DNA of 64,000 bases from Zygnema cylindricum (Eukaryota; Streptophyta; Zygnematophyceae; Zygnematales; Zygnemataceae). Below are positions 1-27,312 of this stretch, one piece after another. The notes below the pieces were generated by a model. It searched no databases and had not been told where the DNA came from. It saw only the letters and a list, made by a program, of their open reading frames with translations. Each line of letters opens with the position of its first letter. Positions within the stretch are counted from its first letter, which is position 1. The translations under genes were made by a program, and so were the position numbers. The stretch spans positions 24,706 to 88,705 of the forward strand of contig JBBHKE010000986.1 in assembly GCA_037447655.1 (NCBI GenBank), read 5' to 3'.

Positions 1-1913
1 ACTTATGTGGATTTGTTTCGGGAAAAGTGAGATGTCCACCACCGGACTTTGGTGGAACTCACTATAGATATTCATCTGGGGCTTTCCATAAAACCAACCG
101 GAGTTCACATACAACGGAAGGTGAAGGAAAATCATTGCCATAGAAAAGGGAAAATGGGAGAAGTGTATAGGAACATGTGTAGTGAGGGGAGCTAGGGTCT
201 TGGCTATTGTTCCACATTTAGGGGTTATAACTAAGCAAAAATCTGAAGAAAAAGACAAAAAAAAATGGGACTACAACAACATAAAACATCTTATACTTAG
301 AAACGTGTCTAAATCAATAGCTATCACCCTTATAATCATAACCAAGTCTTCAAAAATCTGAAAAACACTAATTAAAACATATAAAAGTGAGACTATACAT
401 AGGTTGCAGTTGGTAAAACAAGAAATAGAGGCCTATGTTTATAAAGGCGGTACCATGATAGAGTTTTGCAACGATATTGTTGCACTTAAAAAATTAGAAC
501 TTGGAGTGTGAATGATGAGGAAGAAGGGGAAGAGGAGAAACAGGATAATAACATTGAGCAGCTTCTCCACATCGGTAGTATAGGGAAGAGAGAAAAACAC
601 ACAGAAATTTCATAAAAGCTATAGTGTGCTTTTGGAGGTATAAAGGAACTAAAGTGAAAGGAGGTACTTGAGGGAGTTAAACATGATGGGGATGTCAAAG
701 AGTGTAAAGTAAAAGATTTAGAAATGAGAAAGTAAGACCAAAAATTAAAATTGGAAGAAGGGAAAAATCAAAAAATTGACGATATTCTAATAATTTTTTT
801 GGAGACTTCAATGGATTCCTAAGAAAGGGGAAAAGTAAATCTAGAAGGAGCTTCAAAGGACAAGGGAGAAAAGGAAAATTTAATGGAAGGTTTAGGGGAG
901 GAGAAATATGTTTTGGGAATCAATAGTGAAAGACTCATATAGATATATATGAAAGAGGGAAGAGAGAAAAAAATCAAAAAATGGGGTAATTATCATAAAT
1001 AATCATTTAAGTGGGGAAGATGTAGAATTTATGAGAACTTTAGTCCGGATTAGTGGTTTTTGGGTAAATTTGGGTGAGGGTGGATTTCACATCACTACCT
1101 GGTGTGATATCACTTCTGAAGATGTGCTTGTAAAAGGGTTAGCATCTGGGTATAAGTTGCATATTGGGGCGGGGGCTAGCTGTTGAAACAACAATCGGAA
1201 AATTAGATTTAGCTCGGGTGAAAAACGGATGAGGTGGATAAAATCCTTGTTCTAAGAGCTCGGATTTATGAAAAGTGGCAAGCAAAATAAAACGTGTGAT
1301 AAACAAGATGCAATGTTTATTTCGACTCGTCTAATTCACATTATTAAACACGGGGGTATTCACTTAAAAATTTATGAGGGGAAAAGGAAAAGAAAAAGAA
1401 AATATATATACATTTTTTTTTTTTTTGTTGTTTTTTTTGTGAGTTGAAAAAAAAAGTAGACTAGAAAATAAAGGGAATGTTAAAATCTCTTTATTTTATA
1501 AGTTTGTATTTGTCAACTCATCTGGGTATGTGTTGCATATTGAGGATGGGGCTGGTTGTTGAACCACAATCGAAATTAGATTTTGCTCTAGATGAAAAAA
1601 GGGATTAAGGTGAATAAAATCTCTTTTCCAAGAGCTCGGATTTATGCAAAATAAAATGTGTGATCAACAAGATGCAATGTTTATTTTGCCTGTCTATTAA
1701 CTTTCTTTTGTCATGCGGTAGGTATTTCACAAAGTTAGAGGAGAAAAGGAAGACAGACAGCCAATATATACGTTGTTAGTTTACTTTTTGTTAGTTTTTT
1801 TCGTGAGTTGAAACAAAAAGTATCAGAAAATAAAAGGAGAGTTAAAATGCATTTTGGTATTTGAGTTCCATATTTGTCAACTCACTGTATGTCAGATGGT
1901 CTTTCAAGGTTCC
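1..1913 (+). mobile_element. Decayed internal region of a non-autonomous Copia-type LTR element (5' end outside window)
   Basis: The + strand matches, block by block, the internal region of the intact element at 20147-24452, which lies on the minus strand. The Gag start region is at 1-100 (reading into the element's conserved VRCPPPGFGG-like stretch), the Gag middle at 280-480, the acidic linker near 500-550, and the RT/RNase H remnant at 900-1190. The reading frame is broken by many stops and indels. The polypurine tract near 1465-1480 and its duplicate near 1822-1838 precede the 3' LTR. The same PR-INT-RT deletions seen in the intact copy are present here, so both descend from one deleted ancestor. 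The family assignment is inferred from that comparison. Confidence 0.75.
1146..1888 (+). repeat. Internal tandem duplication of about 370 bp at the 3' end of the element
   Basis: Two consecutive diverged copies, about 1146-1517 and 1518-1888. Each runs from a CATCTGGGTAT(A/G) start through a block ending in CAACAAGATGCAATGTTTAT and a GTGAGTTGAAA(A/C)AAAAAGTA stretch, to a polypurine tract and TTTGTCAACTCA. It is a local duplication of the RNase H remnant, 3' UTR and PPT. It is absent from the intact relative at 20147-24452. Confidence 0.7.
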
Positions 1914-3093
1914 TTCTTGATATTTGTGTATTTTCTAGGTCTGTAAATAGGATGGAAAAAGGTAGAGGTAGTCTGCTTCTAACTCCTCTCTCCAAGCTCC
2001 CACACTTGTTGTAGTCACTGAAGGCTGGATAGGGAGCTAGAGCCATGGCTGCCTAAGCTCTTTAGAGAAGACAAGGGGTAAATTAGGCAGACTTACCAAA
2101 AGATAGTTGACGGTCCCAGGAATTGATCCTGGTACCTGTCGTCTGTCAATCAATCATAGCCGGTAGCTTTAACCGTTTAGTTTAGCGCTAGTATTAAGAC
2201 ATATAAGGTTTGATAATTATTTAATTTGTTACACGTAGACTTTATCATTTAACTTGAAATATATACGTAGAGCATAGATACAGTTATATAAGTACGAAGT
2301 ACGATACGGTTACAAAATAAATACCGCGCATTCTGTTTGACATCAAAAAGAATACCTCGCAAGTATTTATGACGACTACGATTGAAATCTAGATTTGATC
2401 AGACGACCGCGAAGGATGCCGAGATCGCGAAATAGGATTTTGGCGGTTTGCGATCACCGCCACATCAAATGACACGTGACGAAACCACATTGGATTGCAG
2501 TAACTCCGGGGATTACAAAAACGAATCGCGATATGACACGTGTGGACATTTTGGCCATGTTGTACGATGGCCGTACAGAAAGTACATCAACACCTGTACT
2601 TTTATGTACGATACAGTATTTTGACAGGTGTCGTACGACAATAGATAGAGTCTTAGAGGAGAGATAGGGACTTAGAAAATTTTGGGTAGATTGCTGCCTC
2701 TCCCAGAGAGCACCTTGTATAAATGGCAAACTTTGGCCAGCCATAACTATCAATTTACTTGACCATTTTCAGTGATTCTTTTTGCTGCGGACTCAAGGGA
2801 GTCCAGGCTACAAAGGGGTGTAGTCGGTCAGAGTTTTTGTCTGCCAGGGTGGCTGCATTTATAAGGGAAAGTCAAAGTGGGTGAATGTGTCCAAATCTCA
2901 TATTCTAACTTTGCATTCTGTGGTGGAACTGAGCACACAAAAAGTGTTATTTCACAGGGGTGAATCTATAGTGGGGTTTTGATTGTCAAGGGGTTAGTCA
3001 TTTGGGTTTATATCAACTTGGAGTCGGCACTATCTAGATTACCTTATTTTGGATCTGCATACTCTGAGGGCCAATGGAGGTCTTTGAGTTTCA
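1914..3093 (+). repeat. 3' LTR (LTR E) of the decayed Copia-type element
   Basis: About 1180 bp, close to the 1179-bp LTR at 20147-21325. It aligns in the opposite orientation over its whole length: it starts around TTGATATTTG(T/A)GTATTTT and ends in GGAGGTCTTTGAGTTTCA. It carries the family's conserved internal blocks: GCCATGGCTGCCT, the GATCCTGGTACC hairpin near 2130, GACACGTG boxes near 2470 and 2537, and the AGAGTTTTTGTCTGCCAG block near 2840. The start is approximate because the left edge has drifted. Confidence 0.8.
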
Positions 3094-4178
3094 TTCCTCA
3101 CACTTGTCCTAGTCACTGAGGACTCAAAGATAGCCATGGCTACCTTAAGAAATCACAAAGACAGACAAAGTTGGTAGCTGGAGGCTAGCAAAAGTGACAC
3201 GCCTATACCAGGATTTTAATCTATGTCCTACAAAAACGCTATACGGTGAAGCGGTGCTCTTAGCCCTTTGATCTAAATAAAACGTTGTTCTCTCTGGGTA
3301 ACTCTTCAATATTTAGTTGTACCCGGTGACATACGAAACAAACATGAATAAAACCGAACGAAATAGTGGACCACACGAAACGACATTACATTTATAACGG
3401 AAGAAATCAAGTGTCGGTTTTAGATCAGGCAGCTCATAGTGAAGCTAACGCACCGGCGTGGACATTTGGCGCTTTGTGAGCTAATTTGGCGGAGAAAATG
3501 TGGCACTCCATTAGTGGACTGCAAACTTTACGACGAGAGCGACTATGGCTCAAGAATTGACACGCATCAGCGCGACGGCCATGCCGTACCATGGTCTTAC
3601 AATAAGTAGAGCGACACTTGTACTCTCTTGTACCTTAAAATCTTATGATTGGATACATATATTAGTAGTAGGGGTTTAGAGAGGGGTTGAGGACTTAGAC
3701 AAATCTTAGGTAGCCACCTCTCTCCGAGAGAGCTCTTTTACAAAACATCATTTTTGAACATCTATAACTTACTACTCAATGGAGCATATTCAATGATTCT
3801 TTTTTTTATTTGGCTCAAGGGAGTCGGGCCTTTACACATGTGAAGTTTGTCATATATCTTGCCTATCATAGTGGCGGCATTTATAAGGGAAATTCAAAGT
3901 GGGGGAATGTGTTCAAACGCTCATATTCTCACTTTGCATTCTGTGGGGGAATTGAGCACACAGAATGTCTTCTTTCACAAGGGTGAATTCTAACTTTGCA
4001 TAATGTGGGGGAATTGACCACACGGAATGTCTTCTTTCACAGGGGTGAAGCACTATTGGGGATTTTGAGATTGAAGGTGTCAGTAATTCGGAATTTTATT
4101 AACTTGGAGTTGACACTATCTAGATAACCTTCAGGTGGTATACTCACTCTGAGGACCAATGGAGGTCTTAGAGTTACA
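3094..4178 (+). repeat. 5'-truncated LTR (LTR F) of the same Copia superfamily group
   Basis: Immediately follows LTR E and repeats the same order of landmarks in diverged form: CTTGTCCTAGTCACTGAGGA, GCCATGGCTACCTTA, ACCAGGATTTTAATC, GACACGCATC, the CTCTCCGAGAGAGCTC block near 3725, and a terminal ACCAATGGAGGTCTTAGAGT near 4157-4176. About 90 bp of the LTR's 5' end is missing. The 3940-4020 stretch contains a short internal duplication around the phrase GAATTGA(G/C)CACAC. No internal region of its own is visible, so it is a solo or truncated LTR. Confidence 0.65.
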
Positions 4179-4238
4179 TACTTGGTATGTGGTGCCCCAA
4201 CATGCTTGTGACAACAACCTCCAAGCCTCAAATAAAAA

Positions 4239-4600
4239 TTATAATGCACTAGCCAAGATTGTAAACCCACACGATAGAGCTTCTTTCGCGGTGCCGCTTC
4301 GAGGGGTGGCAAACCGAGGTGTGTCCTGGTGCTGGGCAATCTGCAGGCTATCAATAGCCATGGGCATATAACGGGCAAAAAGCAAAGCACGACGAGTGAG
4401 TTTTTCCAAAATAATAGTGTTAGACATCAGTGGAAATGGAAAGCTCGAAGCTTTCTGAATATCGCGACCGAGCAACGGTTGTCGCCCAAATAAAACATAG
4501 TACGGGTGGATATTAGCCAGACTAGCCTGAACTGACATGCGATATCAGATGGTAATGTAGCCGGGGGACTCTCTCCAGTAATTGATGGTTGTCCACAATC
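4239..4600 (-). pseudogene. Gypsy integrase C-terminal fragment
   Basis: The minus-strand frame reads YRMSVQASLANIHPYYVLFG, followed by RQPLLGRD. This is the end of the rve core of Ty3/Gypsy integrases (family pattern: R-x-S-x-Q-x-S-G-x-S-P-x-x-L-x-F-G-R). Residues upstream in the same frame (WTTINYWRES...YITI) fit the integrase lead-in but include a stop. The catalytic DDE residues and the zinc-binding HHCC head are absent. A deletion has joined this tail to the methyltransferase fragment immediately upstream (4580-4845). Non-functional remnant. Confidence 0.7.
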
Positions 4601-5270
4601 CGAATGTCTTGTGGGAGGGCAGTATGCATATGCTCGTATACAAATTTTGGTAACAAATGCGGGTATTGGGAATGCAACATATTACAATGGTGTAATTGTG
4701 CTTTCCGTGCTAATAGATCAATTTCATTCGAAAAATAAAATCGGATTAATAATTCATTTCGCAAACATGCTAGAAAAGAAGTGCCTAATCCAGCAAAGAG
4801 GTCCAAAATCTCCAATCCATTTGGATGAGGTTTCAATTCGACCGGATTCCAATTAATGGGAAGAAATCTAGAAGAGTCAGTAGGGACTAGGATTGTGGGA
4901 GAGACCGGAGAAAGTGGAATTGACAATGTTTGGTTATAGATTCGGTCAACTTCCCTCGTATCTACAAGAAAACTAGGGTCACTCAAAATTTCTGGTAAGT
5001 AAGAACCATTGGGCATAATTTCTTCTGCTAACAATGAATGAAATATTTCGGCCCCTACTGAATTCCTTGAAAACGCAGGTATGGATGTGGCCGAATTTGC
5101 CATAACAGGCATAGGCTTCCTAGCGGAAATTAACGGAATGCAGATTTTGCGTTCGGGGAAGTTAGTGGGCCAATAAGAAAATGTTTGATCATACATGTCA
5201 ACTCCACCCCTACGCGAAATTTAACGTGTTGTCCCACTTTGCATGCATAGTCACTACATTTAGTGACCTG
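4522..5270 (-). pseudogene. Gypsy polyprotein fragment: retropepsin C-terminus fused to a C5-cytosine DNA methyltransferase N-terminal region
   Basis: An open frame of 224 codons (5196 to 4522). Residues 1-25 (MYDQTFSYWP...) continue the retropepsin-like fold that begins at 5827. Residues 118-205 show C5-MTase hallmarks: SAM-binding motif I (LDLFAGLGT, residues 131-139), the acidic motif II (NEID, 157-160), and a motif III-like LPQDI (194-198). Spacing and order fit the family. The catalytic PCQ motif IV and everything after it are missing: the frame runs directly into the integrase tail region. Known from the literature, as I recall it: some streptophyte-alga (Klebsormidium) and dinoflagellate retrotransposons carry a cytosine methyltransferase. 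Inference: this is a deleted copy of such a Gypsy element. Catalytically dead as it stands. Confidence 0.72.
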
Positions 5271-5425
5271 AGCGTGAACCGAGATCTAGCAAAGCCTGTG
5301 GCCGTTCCGCTCTGGAACCTGAAAACGAGCGGTTCCTTAGTGATTCCTATGACTAGCTCGGTTTTACCCGCTGATGTTAACAACCGAGTAGAAGTGGACA
5401 GAAGCTTGTTCGGAGTCAGACCAAG

Positions 5426-5827
5426 CTAGAGTGCAAATCTAGAGCCCAATATCATCGGCTTTGCACCTGTATCCATGAGGGGCAGGGATGGGGCTATACC
5501 ATTGATGAAGAATGCGCACTTCCCATTATCCAAAATGTTGATGTGACGATCGAGGCAATTTCGCTCCTCTATGGAAATAGACTTAATAGCAACCAGATTT
5601 TTGTGCAGCTGAAGTGCTTGTAACGCGGTAGCTCCAGCTGAGCTATCGGACGTAAAGGAGATAGGGGAGATTTTTGGTGAATCTGAAATCATAGTGGATA
5701 GAATGCACAAGCGTTCTTTTACGCAGTGTGCCTCGTGTATAGTTCGATCCACTTTGTTGAGAGCTTCATTTGCGATGGCTGAAGCGGTTTCGGGCAAGGG
5801 AGGAGAAAGCTCTTTAGTGAATGACAA
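5426..5827 (-). pseudogene. Gypsy retropepsin (aspartic protease) N-terminal fragment
   Basis: A 133-codon minus frame. The active-site triad MDTGAKPMILG is near residues 118-128 (D119-T120-G121), preceded by the hydrophobic SLPL strand and followed by a glycine-rich turn, as in Ty3/Gypsy proteases. The upstream residues (KNLVAIKSISIEERNC) resemble a Gag-PR linker. The frame stops shortly after the active site. The rest of the fold is read in other frames through 5430-5180 and joins the feature at 4522-5270. It lies between the Gag zinc-knuckle region (6116-6448) and the MTase fragment, which fits Gag-PR-MTase order. Confidence 0.65.
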
Positions 5828-6115
5828 AGGATTGCGTTTGTTAGGAGTTTTACAGTCATGGCTGTGATCAATTGAACCTTTGTCGAACGTAACCTCTCAT
5901 TGTTTAATGGTGGAATCTCGTAAGATTCGACCCGCCAACATGGGCATGTGTACAACCGTGCGAGCCATGCCAGTAAATTGTGGTTTCATTTGAGTCATGA
6001 AGGCTGCGAATTGTTCTTTCATCACAACCGCCATTTGCTCTTGCATTTCTAAATGCTCTATTTCTCTTCGAGATACCTTAGGTAGAGTGGTGTCCTTCTC
6101 CGGTTCTTTAAGCGG

Positions 6116-7502
6116 TTAAACCGGTTTTGCGGATCGAGCGGGAATGCCACCATTTTTAATTTGGTTTTGACAGGAAAATTTCGGGTTCTTTATATGACAA
6201 CTTTGGACGTAGTTTCCGGTTTGTTTGCAATGTGTACAAGTAACTCTTTTGTCTGGACACATTCGGGCATCATGCCTCGTCTTCCCGCATCGAAAACACA
6301 ATCGGTTTCCAAGAGCAACAGGTGGGGTTCCCATGCCCGGGACTTTAGGGGGCCAATTGTTAGGACGAGGATTGTTCCATGGTGGAACAATCGGTTCTTT
6401 CGAGAATGTTTTAGGACGGCCATGGGCTTCCCACCAACAATTTTGCATTTAGTATTCCACGGCATGCTGGGCGGCTTGGTCGAAAGTTAACTTCAAGCAG
6501 TACGTTTGAGTCAAGTGACTCTGAATAAATTTCTTAGACTCACTCGAAAACTATCCTACAAATTTTTGGGCAGCTTCAGCATCCGACATTAAGTCCGGCA
6601 ATGCTTCACAAAGAGCTTCCATGTGAGCACGCATGGCAGGGGCGGTCTCTCCCAACTTCCATTCAAAGTTCATTAACTCACGAACTTGGTCAGGGTTTTG
6701 CATACGGTATTCCGCTTGCACCATTTCAAACATGACTGAGAGTTGATCCTGTATAGGGATCGTCATCGTTGGTCATCTTAGGATTCTAGCAAACTATAGC
6801 AAACGTGCAACTATAGCAAACTCTTGTGGTATTTCCGCAACTGCTGCTGTAATAACATCGCCGTTGAGATCGAGGACTTCCAAGATAGCCGGTTGGTATG
6901 GAATCTCTGGTTGTCCTGTAATAGCAGGACTCCGAGCGAAAGCCGGAGAAAACTGTGTCATTGCAAGTACGGAATCATACTTGCGAGAATAAAGAGTAGG
7001 TCTGAACCGCAAAGGTAGCGGCCTAAAAGAGAGAAAGCGACCCGTAGATCGAATCGATCTTGGTACCGAAATGCAAGATCACGCATTTCGGTATCAAATA
7101 GCATTAAAAAATGCGATAAAGTCATGGTGTCATTCATTCCTCAAAAACAGAAATGAAGGCGTCCCCCTCCCTCGGATGTGTAAGCCATTTCTAATAATGG
7201 AATGCTTTGGGATAAAATTGGATGGGTAATTTGCGAAAACCAAAAAGAAAATGAATCGGAATCCGACACGTCAAGGTAATCGTGGTCAGATTCCTCTTGG
7301 AAAATTGTGGAAGAGACTGATGATAAGGAAGATACTGAGGTGAGAGTGGATCGAACCGAAGGGGAAATTTGACCCGAGATATATAGGGAAAGATGGTCCA
7401 AAAGACTAGATAAATCTGATGGTCCGTTTTCCGTGGGCCTAATTGAGGCCGCAATCGAGTGGTTCCGACAGGATAATCAAGATTATCCCAATCGGTGGGC
7501 AT
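6116..7502 (-). pseudogene. Gypsy Gag fragments with a CCHC zinc knuckle
   Basis: Frame-shifted Gag on the minus strand. A possible N-terminus is at 7502-7141. Capsid-like pieces at 7140-6950 read MTLSHFLMLFDTEMRDLAF, and at 6766-6551 read MTIPIQDQLSVMFEMVQAEY. The nucleocapsid region is at 6448-6116, with CFRCGKTRHDARMC as a good CX2CX4HX4C knuckle. A second CTHC...C knuckle has lost its histidine (N instead of H). Several stops and frame changes make it non-functional. It is 5' to the protease at 5827 in the same orientation, so it is taken as the same element. Confidence 0.65.
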
Positions 7503-9240
7503 AAAAATGATAACACCAAATGGTGACTAGATAACAAACCCAATCTATCTGATATACTTCAAATGCCAGGCCACACCACTCTTTTGTCCAATCAGCCAAT
7601 CAATCTCTAACAAGGCCTCGATGGCCAAATCTATCAGGAAGTCGTATTACCAAAACCTTCACCCTGTAAACAAGGGGACAAGGCCGAAGGGCTAGATCTA
7701 TAAAGGCAAAAAACTTATTATCCAGGCACTCCCAAGTGCAAATCTAAAGCGGCACAATCCACAAAAGTGCTAACCAATGCCTCCAACGGCAAGATCTATG
7801 GAAGAAATTCCACTCCGGGCAAAACAAACTCAGCCAAGTTCACTCAAGGCTAGATAGCAAGCAAGGAAAGCTGGACAAATGCAATGCTCAATACAAGTGG
7901 ATTAACACTAATCCAGTCCAAACACGATCCCTCTATAGGATCAACCGACTACCTTAACACACGCCTGCACCCGCAAGGCATCGTGATACTTACATAAAAC
8001 TCTTAGCAATCTGGTGATTGCCAAGGGTGAACTGCGGTTGTTCGCTACAACCGAAGTTATGCAGAGCTCCCAAGAACAGATCCGCTCCACTAACTCCACT
8101 CCTTAGTGAAGTATGTCTCAATGTGAGCAAACGATGCTCAAAATATATAACAAAGAAAATGGGGAAAACAAAAACCAAATACTTAGGTTAGTGTAGTATA
8201 TCGTTGGCCGAAAATTGGCCAATAAGGTAAAACGTCAACTAACAAGCAAATAGTAATTATAAATGTAGAGCTAGTTATAGATACTTGTAGAAATGTATCT
8301 ATAAATATTTATTTTTGATATATATATATATATATTTTTTTAAATATTTTTGTTTTTTTTTCTTTAAATAAAAAGAAAACCGAAATTGAAATAAAAACAA
8401 ACAAGCAAGTAAAGAAAATAACACAATTTTCAATTGCAGGAATACTAAGCCGATGGATGATCGTTAGGCCCCACAGTCTATTTATATTCCTTGCAGGAGT
8501 TATCTTTATCGAGAATAATCTGAATTTATACTTAAATAAAATGAATCAAAACATAAACAACCGCGAAAGATAAATAAAAACTGAAAATGACAATATGCCC
8601 GACACTTATGAGGTTTGAGATAACCAAACTCAAAAGATGCGCAAAAGCCAAATAGAAATAAATACACACTCTCAAGAAATAAAAAAACAAATCAATAATC
8701 CCAACATGCAACTTTCACACTTATTAAAATTTAGCCACAGCTGGGGAAAGAAGTTTGTGTTGTGAGATCGAGGTCGAAATCCACTCAAAAGGAAGAGAAA
8801 AGTGAAGGGAAACCGTGTAGGTCTTTGCGGAAGCCGTATAGATTAATATGTAAGGCTTCACAAGATATTGATAATGTAATGAAAAACTAGACGCTTTACG
8901 CAAAGGCAGAAAAACGCCTCTAAGCTGTCCGGACAATTTAACAAATAAAAAGATGGCTGCAAAAAATCGTCAATACTGAAAATAATTAAAATGAATAATT
9001 CTTGCACTTGAAAATTGTGTACAGGAAATGATCCGAAATGAACTAATTAACAAAAACTACGCCTAGCGAAAATAGGCCAATCAGAGTACAGCGTGCTATG
9101 TAAGTATTGGCGTCTAGTTTGGATTCAGCCAAGAGGATGCCGAAATCCTATGCCCTACGTTACAGAATCTATAACCTACGGATTAAAACCCTTCCTATCT
9201 ACATGTGAATGCGTGAACCTCTAAATGTTTCACGACTTTT
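7503..9240. other. Non-coding stretch upstream of the Gypsy Gag; probable leader/LTR sequence, not resolved
   Basis: No credible protein frame on either strand. It includes C/A-rich sequence (7560-7980), an AT-rich patch with TATATATATATA near 8318-8332, and A-rich sequence up to 8700. By position it should hold the 5' LTR and leader of the minus-strand Gypsy element. I could not find a second LTR copy or a clean TG...CA boundary. A 35-bp core near 9206-9240 (AAAACCCTTCCTATCTACAT onward) recurs inverted near 10815-10850. Confidence 0.4.
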
Positions 9241-9840
9241 AAATGTCCAATCGCGTGACTTCGTCAGAATTGACAATCGCTTTGTCTGTCACACGCGTCA
9301 ACGGTCCAGATGAGATATTACGAAAATCGTATACTTTGCGTCGACGGTCGAGATGCTCCCTCGCGGAAAATGATTCCAAATTGTCGTCCGCCAAGATTTC
9401 GGGAAATGAAAGTAGGTACGGTAGGACCGAAGGTACGATCCAATTTGTAGTCGCGTAAATTCCGAAAAAGGTAAGTCGTACGGTTTACGTGAAATCACCA
9501 AAGTAGCCGTCGGCGGAAATCGCGGGCGATAGATGTGGTACGGAAAGATTATTTCCATCGACGTGAATTCGAATATGAGTCGTCGGCGGAAATTCCAGGA
9601 TATAAAAACAGGTACGCCAAGACCGCAAGTACGGTCCAATATGTGACCGCGAGAATTCCGGTCAACTTAAGTCGTACGGTTGACGCGAAATAATCAAATC
9701 CACCATCGACATAAATCGCCTAAAATATACGTCGTATGGTAAGATCGCGGGTACGGTCCAAATCGTCATCCCGGATATTACGGAAAATGTAGGTTGTACG
9801 ATACACGTCGTACAGTACTGCGAAACCCAAATAACACCCA
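9241..9840. repeat. Degenerate GTAC-rich tandem repeat, unit roughly 180 bp
   Basis: Phrases such as GGTACG(A/G)TCCAA(T/A), GTCGTACGGTT(T/G)ACG(T/C)GAAAT and CG(G/A)CGGAAAT recur at about 9410-9520, 9630-9700 and 9750-9800 with heavy divergence. CGTACG and GTAC tetramers are very dense. Open frames across it are by-products of the CG-rich composition. It may be part of a Gypsy LTR. Confidence 0.45.
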
Positions 9841-10462: not shown

Positions 10463-11374
10463 TCACGATTTCTTGCACACACGGTTAGTTTGCTCGCGTT
10501 ATCGCCGTTTTATCTATTTGGGACGTGTACGCGATTCGCGTGCACGTTTCGTTTGAACATGTACTAATTTAGTGCGATTTGTTTCATTTCGTGCGTAGGT
10601 ACACGATTTTGGAGTATAAACGTGGAATATCGTTTGGGTAACGCATCGCGATTTCTAAAGTATTTCGTGCATTATGGTTCGTTTCGTGCGTATGCACGCG
10701 ATTTCAGAGTATAGACACCAAGTATCGTTAGGCGACGAAGCGCAATTTCCGAGAGCGTTGGCGACGTTTTGATGTACCTTCATTCATTTAAGTTGGGAAC
10801 CCATGTAGGTTCGCGCATACATGTAGTTAGGAAGGGTTTTTACCCTCGGACGTTGGATTTTGTTAGGCGTACGGCAAACGATGTTGGCCGCCTATTGGCC
10901 AACATCTTAAAATGTTCCATTCATGTAAAGTAGGCTAGACTTAGGCTGGTTTCGCTCTAGGCATAGCTTAGTCCCTACTTAGGCATTCTCAAACTTAGAG
11001 AATTTAGCTTTTGGACAAGAATTTTCTCTTGGCGGCGCAACTTTTCTCTTGCTCTCTCTCTCTCACTGATTGCTCAAGTTTATTCTTTCCTTTTGCTAGC
11101 TAGCTGTAGAGGTTAGATAGTTTACGTATATTCTCCCTTGTAATTCTGCCCACGCTTTTAATCCACGCGGCTTCAAGGGTAATCCATTTCAGTTTTTTCT
11201 CTTCCCTTCTCTCACACCTGCGGTTAAGGATATCTCCATCTATGATTTCCTCAAACCCAGTCATATGTCTTGGGAAATCCCGGCCTATGCAGCCGTTCAA
11301 TCCCCAATTTCATTGTTTCCTGGTCTGGCACCGCACTGGACAGCTGCATTTCCGACGCGTAGCTGGCACCACTG
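10463..11374. other. No gene seen; probable Gypsy LTR or leader sequence
   Basis: Contains two diverged copies (about 10565-10680 and 10681-10760) of a block around TTTCGTGCGTA(G/T)G(T/C)ACACGATTT. It also holds the inverted counterpart of the 9206-9240 core, and a CT-rich patch at 11050-11070. It sits directly upstream, in the right orientation, of the + strand Gypsy RT, so it is plausibly 5' sequence of that element, but LTR borders could not be set. Confidence 0.35.
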
Positions 11375-12915
11375 GGTGAACTGCTTGCAGCAAACTCGGT
11401 AAAATACGAGTTAGGCCACTCACTCATCGCCGATGAGCAAATTGCATTTGCTCAGGCCATGGAAGCTTTCACTATCAAGAGTCTCGAGACGCCCAAGTGG
11501 AAGTTCGGTTCCAGTCTCACAAAGGCGGAACATGCACTATTAAGTGACACAATCACCCGTCATATAGATGCGTTTGCTTTCTCCATGAATGACCTTGGAC
11601 GTCATTCTACTTACAAAATGTCAATCGACCTTGAAGATAATCGACCTATCTTTAAGCCAAAACACCGTCTCTTTTAAACAAAATGGGAGATGGTGGACAA
11701 AAGATGCGTAGAATTGGAAAAAGTCGGTCTAATCTATCAGTCAGATTCCACCTTTGCCGCCCCCATAGTCATGCCAAAAAAGAAAGATTCCGACGAAAAT
11801 TTCACTAAGTGAAGAATGTTTGGGGACTACTAATAGCTCAATGCTTAGACCGTTCAAGACCGTCACCCTATGCCTCTAGCGAAGGAAATATTTGACCATG
11901 TAGGTGGTGCAAAGTTCTATAGCATTCTTAATTTGCATCAAGGGTTTAACCATATTTAAATCGAGGAAAGAGATCAGCATAAAACTGCATTTTGGAGCAG
12001 TGATGGTCGATAGGAATGGGTAGTCATGCCGTTCGATCTTAAAAACGCACCCGTCGTGTTTCAAAAAGTCATTGATTCAATGCTGGGTGGATGTAAATTT
12101 GCCCGGTTCTACATCGATGACTTGATAATCGCTTCCGCCACGGTTGAGGAGCACGCCCGCAATATTGAGTGGGTTCTCACCGAGTTAAAGAATGTCGGGC
12201 TAAAGTGTCACCTAGCCAAGTGTACTTTCGGTGCGTAGGGAGTGCCCTATCTCGGCCATTTTATTTCAGATTAGGGCATCACTCCCTTAGAAGCTAAGGT
12301 AGAGGCTATCACTAAACTGCCGGCTCCAACAGATCTCACTAGTTTGAGGGCTTTCCTTGGACTATCCAATTATTACCGTCGTTTCGTATTGGATTTTAGT
12401 ACGTTGGCTTCTCTCCCCGATGACCTTCTCAAGAAATAAGTGCCTTTTGTTTCGGGACCCGCCCAAATAGAAGCGTTTTGAAAAATGAAAACCGCTTTTT
12501 CTAGCACTCCCATTCTCCGACCTCCTAACCACAAGCTTTCCTTTTGCCTACAAACCGATTTTGGGAAGCCAGGCATTACGGCTATTTTAACTCAAAGAGA
12601 GTTAAATGGAGAGTAATACATAGTGGCATAGGCCTGCCGGAGAAATAACTGAGCTGAATCTAATTACAGTAGTTACGAGGGTGAATGTCTCGCCGTGGTA
12701 TTGGGTGTTATTCATTTTCGACATTATCTTTACGGCAAGCCATTCACGCTCCTAACTGACCATCAACCCCTTCATTGGTTGATGACCAAAGATAAGCTTT
12801 CAGGGAAGCATGCCAGATGGGCTTTAATTTTACAAGAGTACGACGTTGATATCATCCATCGGCCCGGTTAGTTAAGCTTGAACGCCGACGAGATTTATCG
12901 GAATCCACTTTAACA
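11375..12915 (+). pseudogene. Gypsy reverse transcriptase / RNase H fragment
   Basis: Reads as one Ty3/Gypsy RT-RNase H region with about ten in-frame stops. The RT lead-in includes DAFAFSMNDLGRHS (about 11567-11608). Fingers/palm: VGLIYQSDSTFAAPIVMP (about 11725). Template grip: HPMPLAKEIFD (about 11865). Palm: MPFDLKNAPVVFQKVID (12026). The catalytic FYIDD box is intact (about 12107-12121). Connection: GLSNYYRRFVLDF (about 12358). RNase H has QTDFGKPG, SYEGECLAVV and LLTDHQPLHWL. It ends at about NADEIYRNPL and is cut off before any integrase. Many stops make it a dead copy. Gag and PR are not found in the same orientation immediately upstream. Confidence 0.85.
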
Positions 12916-15152: not shown

Positions 15153-16218
15153 TGAAACTCTGAGACCTCCATAAGTCCTCCAAGTGGACAGCTTCCAAGA
15201 AGCCTCCAAGATAATCGTGACCCCTTTGTGTTTCAGCAAAAACAACTGCCATCGTGGCAGACAAAAATCTGACCACCTGCACCTGTGTGAAGGCAAGACT
15301 CCCCTGAGTCGATAGCAAAAAGAATCTTTGAATTTGCTCCCCTGAGGAGTAAGTTATGGAGGGTCAAAGTTGACCTTTGGTACAAAAGGTCTTTGGGAGA
15401 GAGGGTCCTATCTCCTAATTTTTCTAAGTCCTATCTCTCTCACAGACTCTATCTACTGATGTACGGAGCCAATCAGATTACACTCCCGTACACAAAAGTA
15501 CAGCTGTCGCTGTACTTTTTGTACGAACACTGTATGACATGGCCTGAATTTCGACACGTGGTATATTCGGATTCGCTCCCTTAATCCTCGCAGATGCCGC
15601 AAACTAATGTCATTCCGCCACGTGTCATCCGATGTGGCAATGACCTAAAACCGCCAAAATCCTCTTCCGCAATCTCGGCGTTTAATTCCGACCGTGCGAT
15701 TAAATTAACATTTAATCGTAGCCGTAATAAATACATACGCGGTATTCGTTTCACTAAAGAAATGAATGCGCGGTATTCGTTTCTTATCCGTGCTGTAATC
15801 CCTACTTTTGCATTAATTGATCTATGTCTCCCGTAAACAGTTTCAGTTAAATGAATAATCCTACGTGTTAATGTTTAAGTAAATATCAAACCCTATGGTA
15901 CGTAACACTAGGTCTAGACTTAACGGATAAGGCTACCGGCTACCTGCAGCTTACCTTCCAGTAGGTACCAGGATCAAATCCTGGAGGTACACATATTCTT
16001 TTAGTAAATAAACCCCTAATGGTAAATAAACTAATATGTATATCCCGTAAACTTCTGAATAGCCTAGGTAGCCATGGCTCTAACTTCCTCTCCAATTTCT
16101 GAGTGACTGCAACAAGTTTGAGAGTTGGAGAGAGAAGTTAGAGGAAGATTACCTCGGCTTCTTTCTATATTTCTATTTAGACCTAGAAAATACTTTAAAA
16201 TGACATTTAATTACTACA
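15153..16218 (-). repeat. 3' LTR of Copia-1 (LTR A)
   Basis: 1066 bp. On the minus strand it begins TGTAGTAATTAAATG right after the polypurine tract and ends GGTCTCAGAGTTTCA, the TG...CA form of LTRs. It is a different subfamily from LTRs C and D: the terminal 20 bp are shared, but the inner terminal block reads AAGTGGACAGCTTCCAAGAA instead of the AGTATGCAGATCC block. It contains GACACGTGG and CCACGTGTCA boxes, paired GTACGG/CCGTAC palindromes, and a T-arm-like hairpin at about 15958-15990. Confidence 0.88.
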
Positions 16219-16231
16219 CACCCCTTATTTT

Positions 16232-16565
16232 CTAGTCAATCTTTAATTTCAGACCACACTTCTCCTTGCAGAAAATTAGCTTAGGGGAAGGCACAGGTTT
16301 GGTCATCATATCTGCTACCATCTCACTATCAGGTCGGTACTCTAAACTGATTATTTTGTTTTCTACTTTCTCTCTAACAAAGCCGAGTCTAATGTCCATA
16401 TGTTTGGCTTTAAAATGATGTTTAGGATTGGCAGAAATAGCAATTGCTGCCTGATTATCACAAAATATTTTCTGCACACCACTCTTAAGATGACCAAGTT
16501 CACCAAGTAAACACTTGACCCACATCAATTCTTTTACAGCAAAGCAAGAGGCCATATACTCAGCT
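16232..16565 (-). pseudogene. Copia-1 RNase H, C-terminal half
   Basis: The minus frame reads AEYMASCFAVKELMWVKCLL, then FCDNQAAIAIS and HMDIRLGFVREKVE. These are the standard tail of Copia RNase H: E of AEYMA, D of CDNQAA, and the HxDIRxxFVR signature. The first codons of the open frame (MEVSEFQ) come from the inserted solo LTR, not from RNase H. The coding wording resumes at 17614 beyond the insertion (STMEA). Confidence 0.85.
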
Positions 16566-17613
16566 TGAAACTCTGAGACCTCCATAAGTCCGCAGAGTGG
16601 ACAGCTTCCAAGAAGCCTCTAGGATAATCCTGACCCCTTTGTGTTTAAGCAAAAATAACTGCCACCCTGACAGACAAAAACTCTGACCAACTTCACCCCT
16701 GTGAAGACAAGACTCCCCTGAGTCGATAGCAAAAAGAATCTATGAATTTGCTCCCCTGGGCAGTAAGTTATGGAGGGTCAAAGTTGACCTTTTGTGCAAA
16801 AGCTCTCTGGGAGAGGGGGTCCTATCTTCTAATTTTTCTAAGTCCTATCTCTCTCACAGACTCTATCTACTGATGTACGGAACCAATCAGAATTGAGTTC
16901 CGTACGCAAAAGTAAAGCTGCCGGTGTACTTTATGTACGGACATTGTACGACATTGCCAAAATGTCGACACATGTCAAATCCGGATTCGGTGCCATAATC
17001 TCCGGAGATTCCACAATCCAACGGAATTTCGCCACGCGTCATCCGATGTGGCGATGGCCACAAACCGCCGAAATCTTCCTCCGCGATCTCGGCGCTAATC
17101 CCGGCCGTCCGATTAAATTCGGCTTTAATCGTAGCCGTAATAAATACATGCGCGGTATTTGTTTCATTTACGAAACAAATGCGCGGTACTGATTTTTGTC
17201 CGTACCGTAAGTCGTACATTATATATTACTGGATCTATGTATCCCGTAATTCATTTCAGTTAAATGGTTTATCGCACGTATACATATTTAAATAAATATC
17301 AAACTATATGATACGTAACACTACCGCTAGACTAAACGGCTAAGGCTACCGGCTATTTCCTGCCTGCCGGCCGGTAGGTACAAGGATCAAATCCTGCCGC
17401 CGGCACATGACTTTTACTTAAATAAATAAACCCTAATATAAATTTCCCGTAACCTCAGGATAGCCAAGGTAGCCATGGCTCTAGCTTCCTCTCCAATTTC
17501 TCAGTGACTACGACAAGTTTGAGAGTTGGAGAGAGAAGTTAGAGATAGACTGCCTCGACTTGTATATTTCTTTTCAGACCTAGAAAATACTAGTAAAACC
17601 ATTAGTTTCTACA
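16566..17613 (-). repeat. Solo LTR (LTR B) inserted in Copia-1 RNase H
   Basis: 1048 bp, TG...CA termini (plus strand TGAAACTCTG...TTTCTACA), same subfamily as LTR A and LTR G. It is flanked by a 5-bp target duplication CAGCT (16561-16565) / CAGCC (17614-17618) with one mismatch. It splits the RNase H codons between STMEA and EYMAS. No internal region: a solo LTR left by LTR-LTR recombination. Confidence 0.88.
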
Positions 17614-17995
17614 CAGCCTCCATGGTGGACTAAGCAATAACCTTTTGCTGTTTGCTACTCCAACAGCAAGCCCCATCACCCACATATAATACATATCCAG
17701 AAGTGCATCTCCTCATCGGAGCATCACCATAACTGGCATCACTCCAAGTAGTGATGTCAGTATTCTCCCCACCCAAATGCAACCATAAATCCCTAGTTCC
17801 TATCAAATATCTAAGGACTCTCTTAGCTGCCTCCCAATCCCTCTTAGTGGGAGCATTTAGACTTCTACTCAACACTCCTACAGTTGCAGCTAAATCCAGC
17901 CGGGTACAATTCATAAAATAGATTAGACTTCCCACTACTTGCCTGTAACGAATAGTCAGCATGAACTTCTGTTCTTCAGGAGATAATTCCTCGTC
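17614..17995 (-). pseudogene. Copia-1 end of RT and RNase H N-terminal half
   Basis: The minus frame at 17962-17630 reads YRQVVGSLIYFMNCTRLDLA, then RVLRYLIGT and DITTWSDASYGDAP with CTSGYVLYVGDGACCW. These are the Copia GSLxY and RYLxGT signatures and the RNase H first aspartate (SDASYGD). An in-frame stop replaces the Q of the usual VIAQSTMEAE just before the solo-LTR insertion. Confidence 0.85.
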
Positions 17996-18921
17996 TAAGA
18001 CTATGACCCCTTATTCTCACTCCCCTCACTTCCCTTCTTCAACTCCATTGGAGTTGTACAACAATTAGCTTTATCCATTTGAAATTTTTGAAGCATGTTC
18101 CATATTGCTTCCTTTTTAGTCAATCTTATAATCTTTCTTTTTCGGTCTCTTTCTACTTGAATTCCCAAAATATATTTTGCTTCCCCCATATCCTTCATTT
18201 CAAATCTCCCCTTAAGATCGGTTTTCAATTTATTAATTTTTTCCATTGATTTACTTAAAACAAGCAAATCATCAACATTAATTACAATAAATATAAAACC
18301 TTCCTCATTTTCGAATACATAGATTGAGTGATCTCAGCTGAACCGGATATATCCCAGACCAGTAAGAAACTTTTCAAGCTTCTTATTCCACTGTTGAGGC
18401 GCCTGTTTCAAACCATAAAGAGATTTAATCAGTCGGCATACCTTACTCTCCTCTCGTTCCACCACAAACCCTTCGGGTTGTCGCATTAAGATCTCCTCTT
18501 CTAATTCTCCATGCAAAAAAGTTGTATTGATGTCCATCTGGTGCACTTCCATGTCTTCCGCTGCTGCCAGGCTGAGAAGTATGCGTACGGAGGGAAATCT
18601 GACGACCGGGGCAAAGGTTTCCTCGTAGTCAATTCCCTCCTTTTGTGTAAATCTCTTTGCCACTAATCGGGCCTTGTAGCGCTCGATTGTGTTATCTAGG
18701 TGCAGTTTTAATTTGAAAACCCACTTACAACCGATTCGTTTTCGGTTAGGTGGACAATCCACCAGCTCCCAAGTATCGGCTGCCATAATTGAGGCCATCT
18801 CCTCATTGATGGTTGTCTTCCACCGGTTTCTTTCTGGACAAGTCATCGCCTCTCCATAAGTGTGCGGTTCATCTTGATGAGGTAGTTTTGTTACCTTGTT
18901 ATTAACCTGTTTTTCTTGCAA
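17996..18921 (-). pseudogene. Copia-1 reverse transcriptase
   Basis: RVT_2-type RT. The minus frame 18921-18334 includes WELVDCPPNRKRIGCKWVFK, YKARLVAKRFTQKEGIDYEE, TFAPVVRF, HQMDINTTFLHGELEEEI, and SLYGLKQAPQQW. The frame shifts near 18340. The catalytic box at about 18262-18276 reads NVDD instead of the usual YVDD, followed by LLVLSKSMEKINKLK and EAKYILGIQVERD. The aspartates are present. The Tyr-to-Asn change and frame breaks mark it as inactive. Confidence 0.88.
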
Positions 18922-18972
18922 TCTTTTGCTACTTCTCCTCCCCCCTTCAAAATATGAGGCCGGAATAGATGG

Positions 18973-20146
18973 TTATCGTGGATTCTTTCGAACAAACTCG
19001 ACTTCTCCCCTATCCGTTGATTCCAAATCAATTTCCACCATGTCTTCCGCTTCGGGTAGAGTTGTCAGTGGAGTTTCCACAGCCGAGTCCTTTTCGGTCT
19101 GATTTGTATCTGCAAGAATGTCATCTTCTCTAAAACCTGGATAGTTAGGAAGCTCAAAGTCATCGGAATTTTCTGACTCAAATCTGGTTTTTACTGACTT
19201 TGTATATTTGAAGGGATCCACAGACTTTCTTTCATCCATAACTACTAGAGGCTTTACAAAGATTATATCTTCCCTTTTTAGATCATAAACTCTATATCTT
19301 TTAACATCCTCATCATATCCTAATAAGTATCCCAGTTTTCCTTTAGGATTTAGCTTCCAATTAGACCGATTTGTATCTAGACTAAATACTTGACTGCCAA
19401 AAACCTTTAAGTGAGTATGTCTGGTTTTCAGCCTGTCCATCTCTCATAAGGTGTTTGATCTTTTATAGTTGAAATAAAAACTCTATTTTTGAGGTAATTA
19501 GCACAGTTCATTGCTTCTGCCCAAAACCTTTTTCCTATCTTCTTATCTGACAACATACTTCTAGCATTATCACTTAGTGGTCTATTTAACCTTTCAGCTA
19601 CCCCATTCTGTTCCTGGTTTTCTGGAACTGTCTTTTGGTGTTCGACCCCATCTTCCCTCAGAAAATCCTCAAACTGGTTAGAAGTATACTCTCCACCATT
19701 GTCGATCCTTATTCTCGTGATTGGAGTTTCATGGAGTTTTTCGCTCCATGCATTATATTGTCTAAAATAATCCTGACCTTCAAACATGTTTTTCAAAAAA
19801 TACACCCGGGAATACCGAGATCAATCATCAGTGATAGTCATCATAAATCTCTTCCCCCCCGGTGAGGGCACTTTGGCCGGTCCCTAAATATTTTGTGTAC
19901 TAGATCTAGAATTTTTTCTCCCTTATAGGTGGTTGTTTTAGGAAAGGGTAATTTGTGTGCTTTACCTTGAGCACATCCATTACAATCACTTATATTATCA
20001 CTCTCACTGAACTGAATCCCTTCCACCACTCCCATCTTTTTCATCTCTCTTAACGTATCTAGATTCACATGCCCAAGCTTCTTATGCCACATCATAATAT
20101 CATGAACACCAACATAATAAAGTTTCTTCGTTTCATTATTTAAAAT
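18973..20146 (-). pseudogene. Copia-1 integrase
   Basis: Zinc-binding head at about 20100-19950: MMWHKKLGHVNLDTLREM, then DCNGCAQGKAHKLPF (HHCC). Core at 19860-19430: TITDD (first D, followed by a stop), RIDNGGEYTSNQFEDFL (second D), and QNGVAERLNR (catalytic E), then FWAEAMNCANYLKNR. The C-terminal part at 19440-18973 has the HLKVFGSQVF and GKLGYLLGYDEDVKRYRVYD signatures of Copia elements. Frameshifts separate the pieces. Its 5' edge is cut by the insertion at 20147. The preceding codons (NHGMFRLI) lie beyond 24453. Confidence 0.88.
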
Positions 20147-21325
20147 TGAAACTCTGAGACCTCCATTGGCCCTCAGAGTATGCAGATCCAAAAGAAGCTA
20201 ATCTAGATAGTGCCGACTCCAAGTTAATATAAACCCAAGTGACTGACCCCTTGACAGTCAGAACCCCAATATAGATTCACCCCTGTGAAATAACACTTTC
20301 TTTGTGCTCAGTTCCACCACAGAATGCAAAGTTAGAATATGAGATTTGTACACATTCACCCACTTTGACTTTCCCTTAGAAATAAAGCCACCCTGGCAGA
20401 CAAAAACTCTGACCGACTACACCCTTGTGTAGCCTGGACTCCCCTGAGTTCACAGCAAAAAGAATCACTGAAAATGGTCAAGTAAATTGATAGTTATGGC
20501 TGCCCAAAGTTAGCCATTTATACAAGGTGCTCTCTGGGAGAGACAGCTATCTACCCAAAATTTCCTAAGTCCTATTCCCCCTCTAAAACTCTATCTACTA
20601 AAGTACGGCACCAATCAAATTACTGTGTGGTACATAAAAGTACAGGTGCCGGTGTACTTTTTGTACGGCCATTGTACAACATGGCCAAATTGTCGACACG
20701 TGTCATAGCTGGATTTGTTTCCGCAATCTCCGGAGTCGCCGCAATCCAACATTGTCGCGCCACGTGTCACATTACGTGGCGATGGCTGAAAAACGCCAAA
20801 AGTACATGTTCCGTGATCGCGGCACCTATCGTGGCCGTCCGATCAAAATCGGCTACAATCCTAGCCGCTGAAATTCGACGCGCGGTATTTGTTTCGCTAT
20901 CGAAACAAATGCGCGGTATCCGTTCTGCCCCCATTCCGTACTTCGTACTAAATTAAACTGTATCTATGTACTAAGTATCTATTAGCCGTTAAACGGATTA
21001 ATCTACATATGAGATTTATATATCTGTCAAACCCTATATATCGTAATATCTGTTCTAGACATAACGGCTAGAGCTAACGGCTACTGTAAATTGACGGACG
21101 GTAGGTACCAGAATCAATTCCTGGGTCCGTCTACTAACTTTTGGTAAGTCTACCTAATTTACCCCCTGTCTTCTCTAGAGAGCCAAGGCAGCCATGGCTC
21201 TAGCTCCCTATCCAGCCTTCAGTGACTACAACAAGTATGGGGGCTTGGAAAGGGGAGTTAGAGGCAGACCGCCTCAGCTCTTTTTCTATCCTAATACAGA
21301 CCTATAAAATACTCAAATATCAACA
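20147..21325 (-). repeat. 3' LTR (LTR C) of the non-autonomous element
   Basis: 1179 bp, plus-strand ends TGAAACTCTG / ATATCAACA. It is followed by the polypurine tract (AAAATAAGGGGAG on the minus strand, 21326-21338). It carries a single copy of the 31-bp unit containing TTTGTTTCGCTATCGAAACA (about 20886-20920), two ACACGTGTCA boxes, GTACGG palindromes and a T-arm-like hairpin (about 21098-21135). Confidence 0.93.
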
Positions 21326-21343
21326 CTCCCCTTATTTTCTAGT

Positions 21344-23230: not shown

Positions 23231-24452
23231 TGGCCCTCAGAGTATGCAGATCCAAAAGAAGCTAATCTAGATAGTGCCGACCCCAAGTTAACATAAACCC
23301 AAGTGACTAACCCCTTGACAGTCAGAACCCCAATATAGATTCACCCCTGTGAAATAACACTTTCTTTGTGCTCAGTTCAACCACAAAATGCAAAGTTAGA
23401 ATATGAGATTTGGACACATTCACCCACTTTGACTTTCCCTTAGAAATACAGCCACCCTGGCAGACAAAAACTCTGACCGACTACACCCCTGTGTAGCCTG
23501 GACTCCCTTGAGTTCACAGCAAAAAGAATCACTGAAAATGGTCAAGTAAATTGATAGTTATGGCTGCCCAAAGTTAGCCATTTATACAAGGTGCTCTCTG
23601 GGAGAGACAGCTATCTACCCAAAATTTCCTAAGTCCTATTCCCCCTCTAAAACTCTATCTACTGAAGTACGGCACCAATCAAATTACTGTGTCGTACATA
23701 AAAGTACAGGTGCCGGTGTACTTTCTGTACGGCCATTGTACAACATGGCCAAATTGTCGACACGTGTCATAGCTGGATTTGTTTCCGCAATCTCCGGAGT
23801 CGCCGCAATCCAACATTGTCGCGCCACGTGTCACATTACGTGGTGATGGCTGAAAAACGCCAAAAGTACATGTTCCGTGATCGCGGCACCTATCGTGGCC
23901 GTCCGATCAAAATCGGCTACAATCCTAGCCGCTGAAATTCGACGCGCGGTATTTGTTTCGCTATCGAAACAAATGCGCGGTATTTGTTTCGCTGTCGAAA
24001 CAAATGCGCGGTATTTGTTTCGCTATCGAAACAAATGCGCGGTATCCGTTCTGCCCCCATTCCGTACTTCGTACTAAATTAAACTGTATCTATGTACTAA
24101 GTATCTATTAGCCGTTAAACGGATTAATCTACATATGACGATTTATATATCTGTCAAACCCTATATATCGTAATATCTGTTCTAGACATAACGGCTAGAG
24201 CTAACGGCTACTGTAAATTGACGGACGGTAGGTACCAGGATCAATTCCTGGGTCCGTCTACTAACTTTTGGTAAGTCTACCTAATTTACCCCCTGTCTTC
24301 TCTAGAGAGCCAAGGCAGCCATAGCTCTAGCTCCCTATCCAGCCTTCAGTGACTACAACAAGTATGGGGGCTTGGAAAGGGGAGTTAGAGGCAGACCGCC
24401 TCAGCTCTTTTTCTATCCTAATACAGACCTATAAAATACTCAAATATCAACA
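23211..24452 (-). repeat. 5' LTR (LTR D) of the non-autonomous element
   Basis: 1242 bp, same termini as LTR C. It differs mainly by two extra 31-bp units (three in tandem, about 23946-24040) and one single-base insertion near 24139. The sequence after the LTR on the minus strand is GGTTATGGGCCCACC. It overlaps the Gag start codon, so the primer-binding site and leader are very short. It does not clearly match the usual TGGTATCAGAGC initiator-Met primer site. Confidence 0.93.
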
Positions 24453-25640: not shown

Positions 25641-25865
25641 TGACAGTGGATGAGTAACTCTTGAGCGTAGTGTATGGTCCGATAGACACGCGTCAGTATG
25701 AGGGATTTAGATCTTATTGTACTTTAATTTTTTACGCTATTCAATACGGTACCTTAATTAAAGTGAAGGAAAAAATATAATTATTTATCCTATTTAGGAA
25801 AAAAACTCAAAATTTCAGGAACCCATATTCGATTTATATACTCTAATAACGATTCACGGTGTACA
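25640..25865 (-). mobile_element. Half of a long TA-type MITE (inverted relative of 29212-29763)
   Basis: The reverse complement of this stretch begins TACACCGTGAATCGTTATTA and follows the left half of the element at 29212-29763: TTTTTTTCCT(A/C)AA, TTAATTAAGG(C/T)ACCGTA, ACAATAAGATCTAAAT. The other terminus is missing at the Copia-1 junction. Confidence 0.55.
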
Positions 25866-27307: not shown

Positions 27308-27312
27308 CCTAC

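What the first reader, a model, noticed from the sequence alone, without database searches (positions are those of the whole stretch)
4522..5270. Cytosine-methyltransferase domain embedded in a Gypsy retrotransposon
Directly behind the retropepsin C-terminus, the same open frame shows C5-MTase motif I (LDLFAGLGT), an acidic motif II (NEID) and LPQDI in the right order, before a junction with an integrase tail. A retroelement-borne DNA methyltransferase could maintain or alter methylation of its own copies. Such captures are rarely described; I recall reports in Klebsormidium and Symbiodinium. The position right after PR and before the (deleted) RT would define an element architecture PR-MTase-RT-INT. 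This copy lacks the PCQ catalytic motif, so intact relatives must be sought.
Basis: partly seen in the sequence, partly recalled or inferred. Interest (0 to 1): 0.88.

Follow-up and report, generated by a model that had tools for sequence, protein, structure and literature searches.

The report
Relic of DNA-methyltransferase-carrying Gypsy retrotransposon
The stretch is a broken copy of a jumping element that carries its own DNMT3-like DNA methyltransferase; a whole, recently inserted copy exists elsewhere in the same genome, and its enzyme has a Glu where such enzymes normally have a Pro in the catalytic motif.

Summary
ORF 4522-5196(-) holds the first ~81 residues (about 4815-4572) of a C5-methyltransferase inside a Ty3/Gypsy remnant, 4292-9753(-). 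The segment alone has no Pfam DNA_methylase hit, but 149 other places in the genome match it (150 scored of 1367 candidates) and two whole MTase domains hit PF00145 at about 1e-12 to 1e-11. This copy is dead: a 3410-bp deletion at 4571/4572 removed the catalytic motif, RT, RNase H and integrase core. Whole copy L009 has one 2395-aa frame, gag-PR-MTase-RT-RNaseH-INT-PHD, and identical 931-bp LTRs. The MTase is under purifying selection and nearest DNMT3. The kind is known: KnitGypsy-Dnmt3 (PMC5890265); a K. nitens relative is 37% identical. Not met in the papers I opened: the PHD finger; motif ECQ for PCQ in 22 of 22 readable copies, with more than one switch among relatives (p-AU 3e-6); two MTase positions in Pol that split its tree (100/99). 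Activity is untested.

The parts
4292..9753 (-). Ty3/Gypsy copy carrying the MTase fragment, internally deleted and frameshifted
   Evidence: 88.9% to L012 over 5197 columns (4572-9753) and 87.9% over 4292-4571
4572..4815 (-). N-terminal part of a DNMT3-like C5-methyltransferase (motifs I-III); ends about 10 residues before the catalytic motif
   Evidence: tblastn with L009 MTase 4842-4564, 66% identity, E 2e-36; deletion falls at residue 140 of the L012 frame, ECQ starts at 151
4816..5196 (-). stretch between protease core and MTase, same frame as the MTase fragment
   Evidence: matches the PR-to-MTase part of L009, 5208-4843, 53% identity
5285..5554 (-). retropepsin core with DTG, other frame, one in-frame stop
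   Evidence: 63% identity to L009 PR, stop counted; L009 PR matches PF13650 E 8e-4, below cut-off
5561..7170 (-). gag with CCHC zinc knuckle (in 6116-6448), several stops
   Evidence: tblastn E 1e-163 and 1e-25; zf-CCHC E 0.007, below cut-off
4290..4571 (-). integrase C-terminal tail joined to the MTase by the deletion, third frame
   Evidence: 68% identity to residues 350-452 of the L009 INT piece, E 9e-39
10976..12909 (+). second, independent deletion derivative of the same family (another subfamily): sequence from upstream of gag joined at about 11175 to RT-RNase H; gag-PR-MTase not found
   Evidence: L014 15-212 and 5655-7390 match 10976-11176 and 11175-12909 at 89-92%

Best explanation
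The segment is a dead relic of a multi-copy Ty3/Gypsy retrotransposon whose Pol carries a DNMT3-like cytosine methyltransferase between protease and reverse transcriptase and a PHD finger after the integrase. SHOWN: relic status, deletion, family, a whole copy with identical LTRs, purifying selection, DNMT3-like sequence and predicted fold. INFERRED: the element's protease frees the MTase (or leaves it joined to RT) in the particle or nucleus, where it methylates the element's own cDNA or new insertion, while the PHD finger on the integrase reads a histone tail and guides integration or marks the site. This would let new copies enter already looking like host-methylated DNA. The 4522-5270 copy itself does none of this.
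Against: No activity is shown: KnitGypsy-Dnmt3 gave no methylation in yeast, called inconclusive by its authors. The Pro of the catalytic Pro-Cys is Glu here. CpG observed/expected is 0.70-1.02 in the element sequences measured, so there is no strong CpG loss; in L011-L017 the CG excess over CHH was small (0.044 against 0.036). No target-site duplication was seen at the one copy with both ends read. L025, which gives the best informed omega, has itself lost the Glu of motif VI, and some protease pairs of decayed copies have omega near or above 1, so selection acted in the lineage and not in every copy.
Confidence: 0.88

Rival explanations
1. The domain is kept but no longer a DNA methyltransferase: ECQ makes it a DNMT3L-like structural or AdoMet/DNA-binding factor.
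For: Glu replaces the Pro of Pro-Cys in 22 of 22 readable copies and in 13 of 23 readable relatives.
Against: In 25 aligned sequences the Cys is invariant, and the Gln beside it, Glu and Asn of motif VI and two Arg of motif VIII are in 90% or more (exceptions include L025 and P0017 in motif VI). The MTase shows purifying selection. In M.HhaI the contact of the ENV Asn is with the carbonyl of that Pro (PMC4802922 passages), a group that a Glu also has. Relatives with PCQ sit among ECQ ones in the tree.
Confidence: 0.3
2. The MTase methylates RNA (element RNA or tRNA primer) rather than DNA.
For: KnitGypsy-Dnmt3 gave no DNA methylation in yeast; the authors raise RNA methylation for the LINE-borne enzyme.
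Against: Sequence and fold are nearest to DNMT3.
Confidence: 0.15
3. A host gene fragment inserted by chance in this copy only.
For: None found.
Against: 149 other genomic places match; in the loci read, the domain sits in the same element; homologous elements exist in other algae.
Confidence: 0.01
4. Chance resemblance to motif I.
For: No PF00145 hit for the segment; the only Pfam hit is FWWh at E 0.003-0.016, below its cut-off.
Against: The best matches are 80-84% identical copies, and complete domains of the family hit PF00145 and DNMT3.
Confidence: 0.01

Closest known systems
KnitGypsy-Dnmt3, Klebsormidium nitens (PMC5890265; abstract, sections 9, 10, 11 and passages read)
   Same: Gypsy element with a Dnmt3-related domain in the Pol ORF under purifying selection. 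K. nitens KFL_013780020 (P0006) is homologous: gag, PR, MTase in that order, 37% identity; that P0006 is one of the paper's copies is inferred.
   Different: P0006 has FPCQ, here WECQ. Here a PHD finger ends Pol; 'PHD' and 'proline' do not occur in that paper's main text. Its legend says the repeats are arranged as in DIRS; here plain LTRs. P0006 is partial.
SymbioDIRS-Dnmt3 and SymbioLINE-Dnmt (PMC5890265)
   Same: Retrotransposon-borne DNMTs; SymbioDIRS also has two domain orders.
   Different: DIRS and LINE, not Gypsy; described there as unrelated to the K. nitens case.
DNMT3A/DNMT3B/DNMT3C
   Same: Closest solved structures by sequence and fold.
   Different: Motif IV is PCN in Dnmt3a and ECQ here. 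Animal DNMT3 has PWWP and ADD domains; here a PHD sits at the far end of Pol.
Chromodomain-tailed Gypsy integrases (chromoviruses; recalled, only a reference title on chromodomain targeting seen)
   Same: A chromatin reader after the integrase.
   Different: PHD finger instead of chromodomain.

Membership tests
Ty3/Gypsy LTR retrotransposon | PR-RT-RNase H-INT order in Pol | tested here: met
   L009 pieces; window copy lacks RT, RNase H and INT core by deletion
Ty3/Gypsy LTR retrotransposon | direct LTRs at both ends | tested here: met
   931 bp, identical, C1344:85514-86444 and 94981-95911; the 3' end of the window copy was not found
Ty3/Gypsy LTR retrotransposon | target-site duplication | tested here: inconclusive
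   none obvious at the one copy with both ends read
DNMT-bearing Gypsy (KnitGypsy-Dnmt3 kind) | DNMT domain in frame inside Pol, multi-copy | tested here: met
DNMT-bearing Gypsy (KnitGypsy-Dnmt3 kind) | homology of the MTase to a K. nitens one | tested here: met
   P0006 E 7.5e-55, 37% identity over 96%
DNMT-bearing Gypsy (KnitGypsy-Dnmt3 kind) | repeat arrangement as in DIRS (figure legend) | tested here: not met
   plain LTRs in L009; K. nitens repeats themselves not compared
C5-cytosine methyltransferase | motifs I, IV, VI, VIII, X and PF00145 | tested here: met
   (1.4e-12, 48.2 bits, cut-off 22); motif names recalled
C5-cytosine methyltransferase | Pro-Cys doublet in motif IV | tested here: not met
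   Glu-Cys in 22 of 22 readable copies of 23 held; L006 unreadable
DNMT3 class | closest to DNMT3 by sequence and fold among solved structures | tested here: met
DNMT3 class | groups with cellular DNMT3 in a tree | not tested
   no cellular plant DNMT3, DRM, CMT or MET1 sequence was held
C5-cytosine methyltransferase | methyl transfer to cytosine | not testable with these tools
   needs an assay

The most novel reading that the evidence does not exclude
Green-algal Gypsy elements form an old lineage with an epigenetic writer (DNMT3-like MTase) and a histone reader (PHD finger) in one polyprotein. In it the MTase has sat at two different places in Pol, and the catalytic doublet has switched between Pro-Cys and Glu-Cys more than once, which points to a natural change of substrate, rate or chemistry of cytosine methylation on the element's own cDNA.
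Probability: 0.35. Interest if true: 0.82.

Novelty: new variant of a known kind. Interest (0 to 1): 0.6.

Why it matters
Why a selfish element would carry the enzyme that its host uses to silence it is an open question, and only a few hosts are in print among the papers I saw. This genome offers a large family with a whole, very recently inserted copy, so the question can be tested. The PHD finger adds a reader to the writer. The repeated Pro/Glu switch in the catalytic motif is a natural mutagenesis series for C5-methyltransferases. It also warns that counts of DNMT or PHD genes in algal genomes may be inflated by such elements.

Tried and rejected
Led nowhere: Pfam on the segment (only a weak FWWh match, taken as chance); PDB phmmer on the segment (three hits, best E 0.35); two protein searches with the decayed frame (none of 753 candidates at E <= 0.01; none of 39 at E <= 10); IMG/VR scans with the segment and with the L009 MTase (six pattern matches each, none confirmed); phage C5-MTases listed but not used; literature on PHD-tailed Gypsy elements (one listed paper each, not opened, off the subject by title) and on motif IV (one paper; passages read, no ECQ in them). 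Rejected: chance motif, host fragment in one copy only.

Weak points: the MTase position class of P0007, P0008, P0009, P0011, P0013 and P0023 was inferred from MTase lying before INT with no RT between, that of P0018 from this and its precomputed RNase H domains; that of P0001, P0003, P0004, P0006 and P0016 from PR before MTase with no RT match in the record. P0021, P0022, P0024, P0025 and P0026 were left out of both MTase trees; the first also held M.HhaI on a very long branch. The AU test presumes that the group was named before the tree was seen; I named it after seeing and mapped it first. In the INT tree P0025, a partial and long-branched row, fell among the own copies, so the class label needs two changes there. 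In one search many pairs gave no value and are not in the counts. Comparisons of copies used only the loci held, not all genomic copies.

Not done: genome-wide count of complete MTases, host DNMT genes, PHD count. The genome search answered once; the second query was tried 25 times and never answered.

Full report
WHAT IS IN THE WINDOW. ORF 4522-5196(-) is 224 aa. Scored against M.HhaI it is the best of 365 six-frame segments of at least 60 aa in the window, with the alignment on the first 48 residues of M.HhaI; 2 of 2000 shuffles reach the score. Pfam gives no DNA_methylase match to the segment, only FWWh at E 0.003-0.016, under its cut-off, so the segment alone would not have settled the matter.

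THE GENOME SETTLES IT. The window is G000:C735:24706-88705 in an unnamed 352.8-Mb assembly of 2689 contigs. 150 places were scored of 1367 candidates and all 150 match (the window itself included), the weakest listed at E 8.4e-69; most full-length matches end at query residue 205-210. I read 20 stretches of 9.5 kb besides the eight short loci; together they are 23 distinct other copies.

A WHOLE COPY. L009 (C1344) has a single open frame of 2395 aa at 1535-8719. Searched in pieces it gives zf-CCHC (19.9 bits, cut-off 20.8) and aspartic protease PF13650 (20.6, cut-off 24.3; DTG present), both just below cut-off, then DNA_methylase PF00145 at 1.4e-12 (48.2 bits, cut-off 22), RVT_1 2e-30, RNase H 4e-35, Integrase_H2C2 2e-15, rve 3e-12 and PHD 3e-10; the MTase of a second subfamily, L011, gives PF00145 at 1.2e-11. 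The LTRs of L009's element, C1344:85514-86444 and 94981-95911, are 931 bp and identical; the element is 10,398 bp. No clear target-site duplication was seen. L010 (C1407) is 99.87% identical over 7070 columns, from L009 position 2274 on; upstream of that the stretch read is different. Identical LTRs mean a very recent insertion. A match to the PHD part was found in 18 of the 20 long loci (not L016, L018), some with stops.

THE WINDOW COPY. It spans 4292-9753(-), 88.9% identical to L012. At 4571/4572 a deletion of 3410 bp relative to L012 joins the MTase, about 10 residues before its catalytic motif, to the integrase tail. Gag and PR are in one frame, the MTase fragment in the second, the integrase tail in the third, with 4 stops in the gag part and 1 in the PR part compared. 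No part can make a working enzyme. The PHD and 3' LTR are not found; next door at 3577-4179 lies a fragment similar to the repeats that flank the gag-only element at 20147-24452. A second deletion derivative, of another subfamily, lies at 10976-12909(+): sequence from upstream of gag joined to RT-RNase H, with no gag, PR or MTase match.

GLU-CYS INSTEAD OF PRO-CYS. Motif IV is ECQG in 22 of 22 readable copies of the 23 held; L006 could not be read. Of 26 database relatives, 23 have a readable motif IV: Glu in 13, Pro in 9 (one of them PCE), Ser in 1. On a tree of 26 MTases built without the five motif columns, the Glu/other label needs 5 changes (4 in the tree); well supported branches force at least 2; holding all Glu rows as one clade is rejected, p-AU 2.9e-6. 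So the doublet changed more than once; the direction is not known. That Pro-Cys is otherwise almost invariant is recalled, not tested. PMC4802922 (passages) states that in M.HhaI the Asn of ENV bonds to the carbonyl of the Pro, so a Glu need not break that contact (inference).

TWO POSITIONS. In 13 of the 26 element rows (five of them own copies; also K. nitens, Closterium and a protein labelled Mesvir1) the MTase lies between PR and RT, in 13 between RNase H and INT; for 12 of the 21 database rows the place is partly inferred from incomplete records (see Tried and rejected). The two classes are separated by a branch with support 100/99. An integrase tree of 19 rows gives the same split except P0025, a partial row with a long branch. 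12 of the 15 relatives with an integrase match also have the PHD; P0002, P0020 and P0021 do not. One old capture followed by a move, or two captures from similar sources, both fit; cellular DNMT3 sequences would be needed.

METHYLATION SIGNS. Without any consensus, by pairs: in 8 of 9 comparisons towards the more decayed copy, C-to-T at CG is about 1.8 times or more that at CHH, and CHG is raised likewise (for example L009 to L026: CG 0.083, CHG 0.077, CHH 0.042); the ninth, L011 to L017, is weak at CG (0.044, 0.061, 0.036). The two reverse comparisons show little. CpG observed/expected is 0.70-1.02 in the element sequences measured. This fits some CG/CHG methylation of copies by any enzyme; it does not show that the element's own enzyme did it.

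WHAT IS KNOWN. PMC5890265 (abstract, sections 9, 10, 11 and passages) describes KnitGypsy-Dnmt3 and the Symbiodinium elements. Its K. nitens enzyme gave no methylation in yeast, which the authors call inconclusive. PMC12344493 (passages) cites the same cases, naming the LTR family Copia. Besides PMC5890265 I opened six papers, passages only: PMC9915684, PMC10538959, PMC4802922, PMC12344493, PMC6453930 and PMC11244446; none of the passages describes another such Gypsy element. The other papers in the listings I saw by title and start of abstract only; one search listed none; KnitGypsy occurs in one paper. For PHD-tailed Gypsy elements searches listed one paper each, not opened. Only open-licence full texts are searchable, and supplements were not open to me.

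HOST. Not given. By size (352.8 Mb) and relatives, a streptophyte alga is likely (inference). PMC9915684 (passages) gives 359.8 Mb, 3,587 scaffolds and 73% repeats for Zygnema cf. cylindricum SAG 698-1a, and a PHD family at least 9 times larger there than in the other strains. If that is the host, PHD fingers of this element could account for that expansion. This is a guess that a name or a count would settle.

VERDICT.

Noticed in passing
window 20147-24452 and 1-3093: Gag-only LTR element: one 628-aa gag ORF (21344-23230, -; copia-type gag PF14223) between direct repeats 98-99% identical, with a second related copy at the window start on the + strand; looks like a non-autonomous TR-GAG-type element (name recalled).
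   Followed up: partly
window 10976-12909: Second copy of the MTase-Gypsy family with its own internal deletion at about 11175; no gag, PR or MTase match in it.
   Followed up: partly
window 15153-27308: Copia-type RT (RVT_2, 18334-18921) and related LTR-like repeats at 15153-16219, 16566-17614 and 26261-27308.
   Followed up: no
P0002, P0005, P0010, P0012, P0014, P0015, P0025: Relatives with the MTase after RT/RNase H instead of between PR and RT, including one named Haematococcus lacustris (P0025).
   Followed up: partly
L009 C-terminus, PMC9915684: The PHD finger of the element might explain the at least 9-fold larger PHD family reported for Zygnema cf. cylindricum SAG 698-1a, if that is the host.
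   Followed up: no
window 51912-53168: 418-aa ORF with a weak N-terminal F-box match (E 0.018, below cut-off).
   Followed up: no
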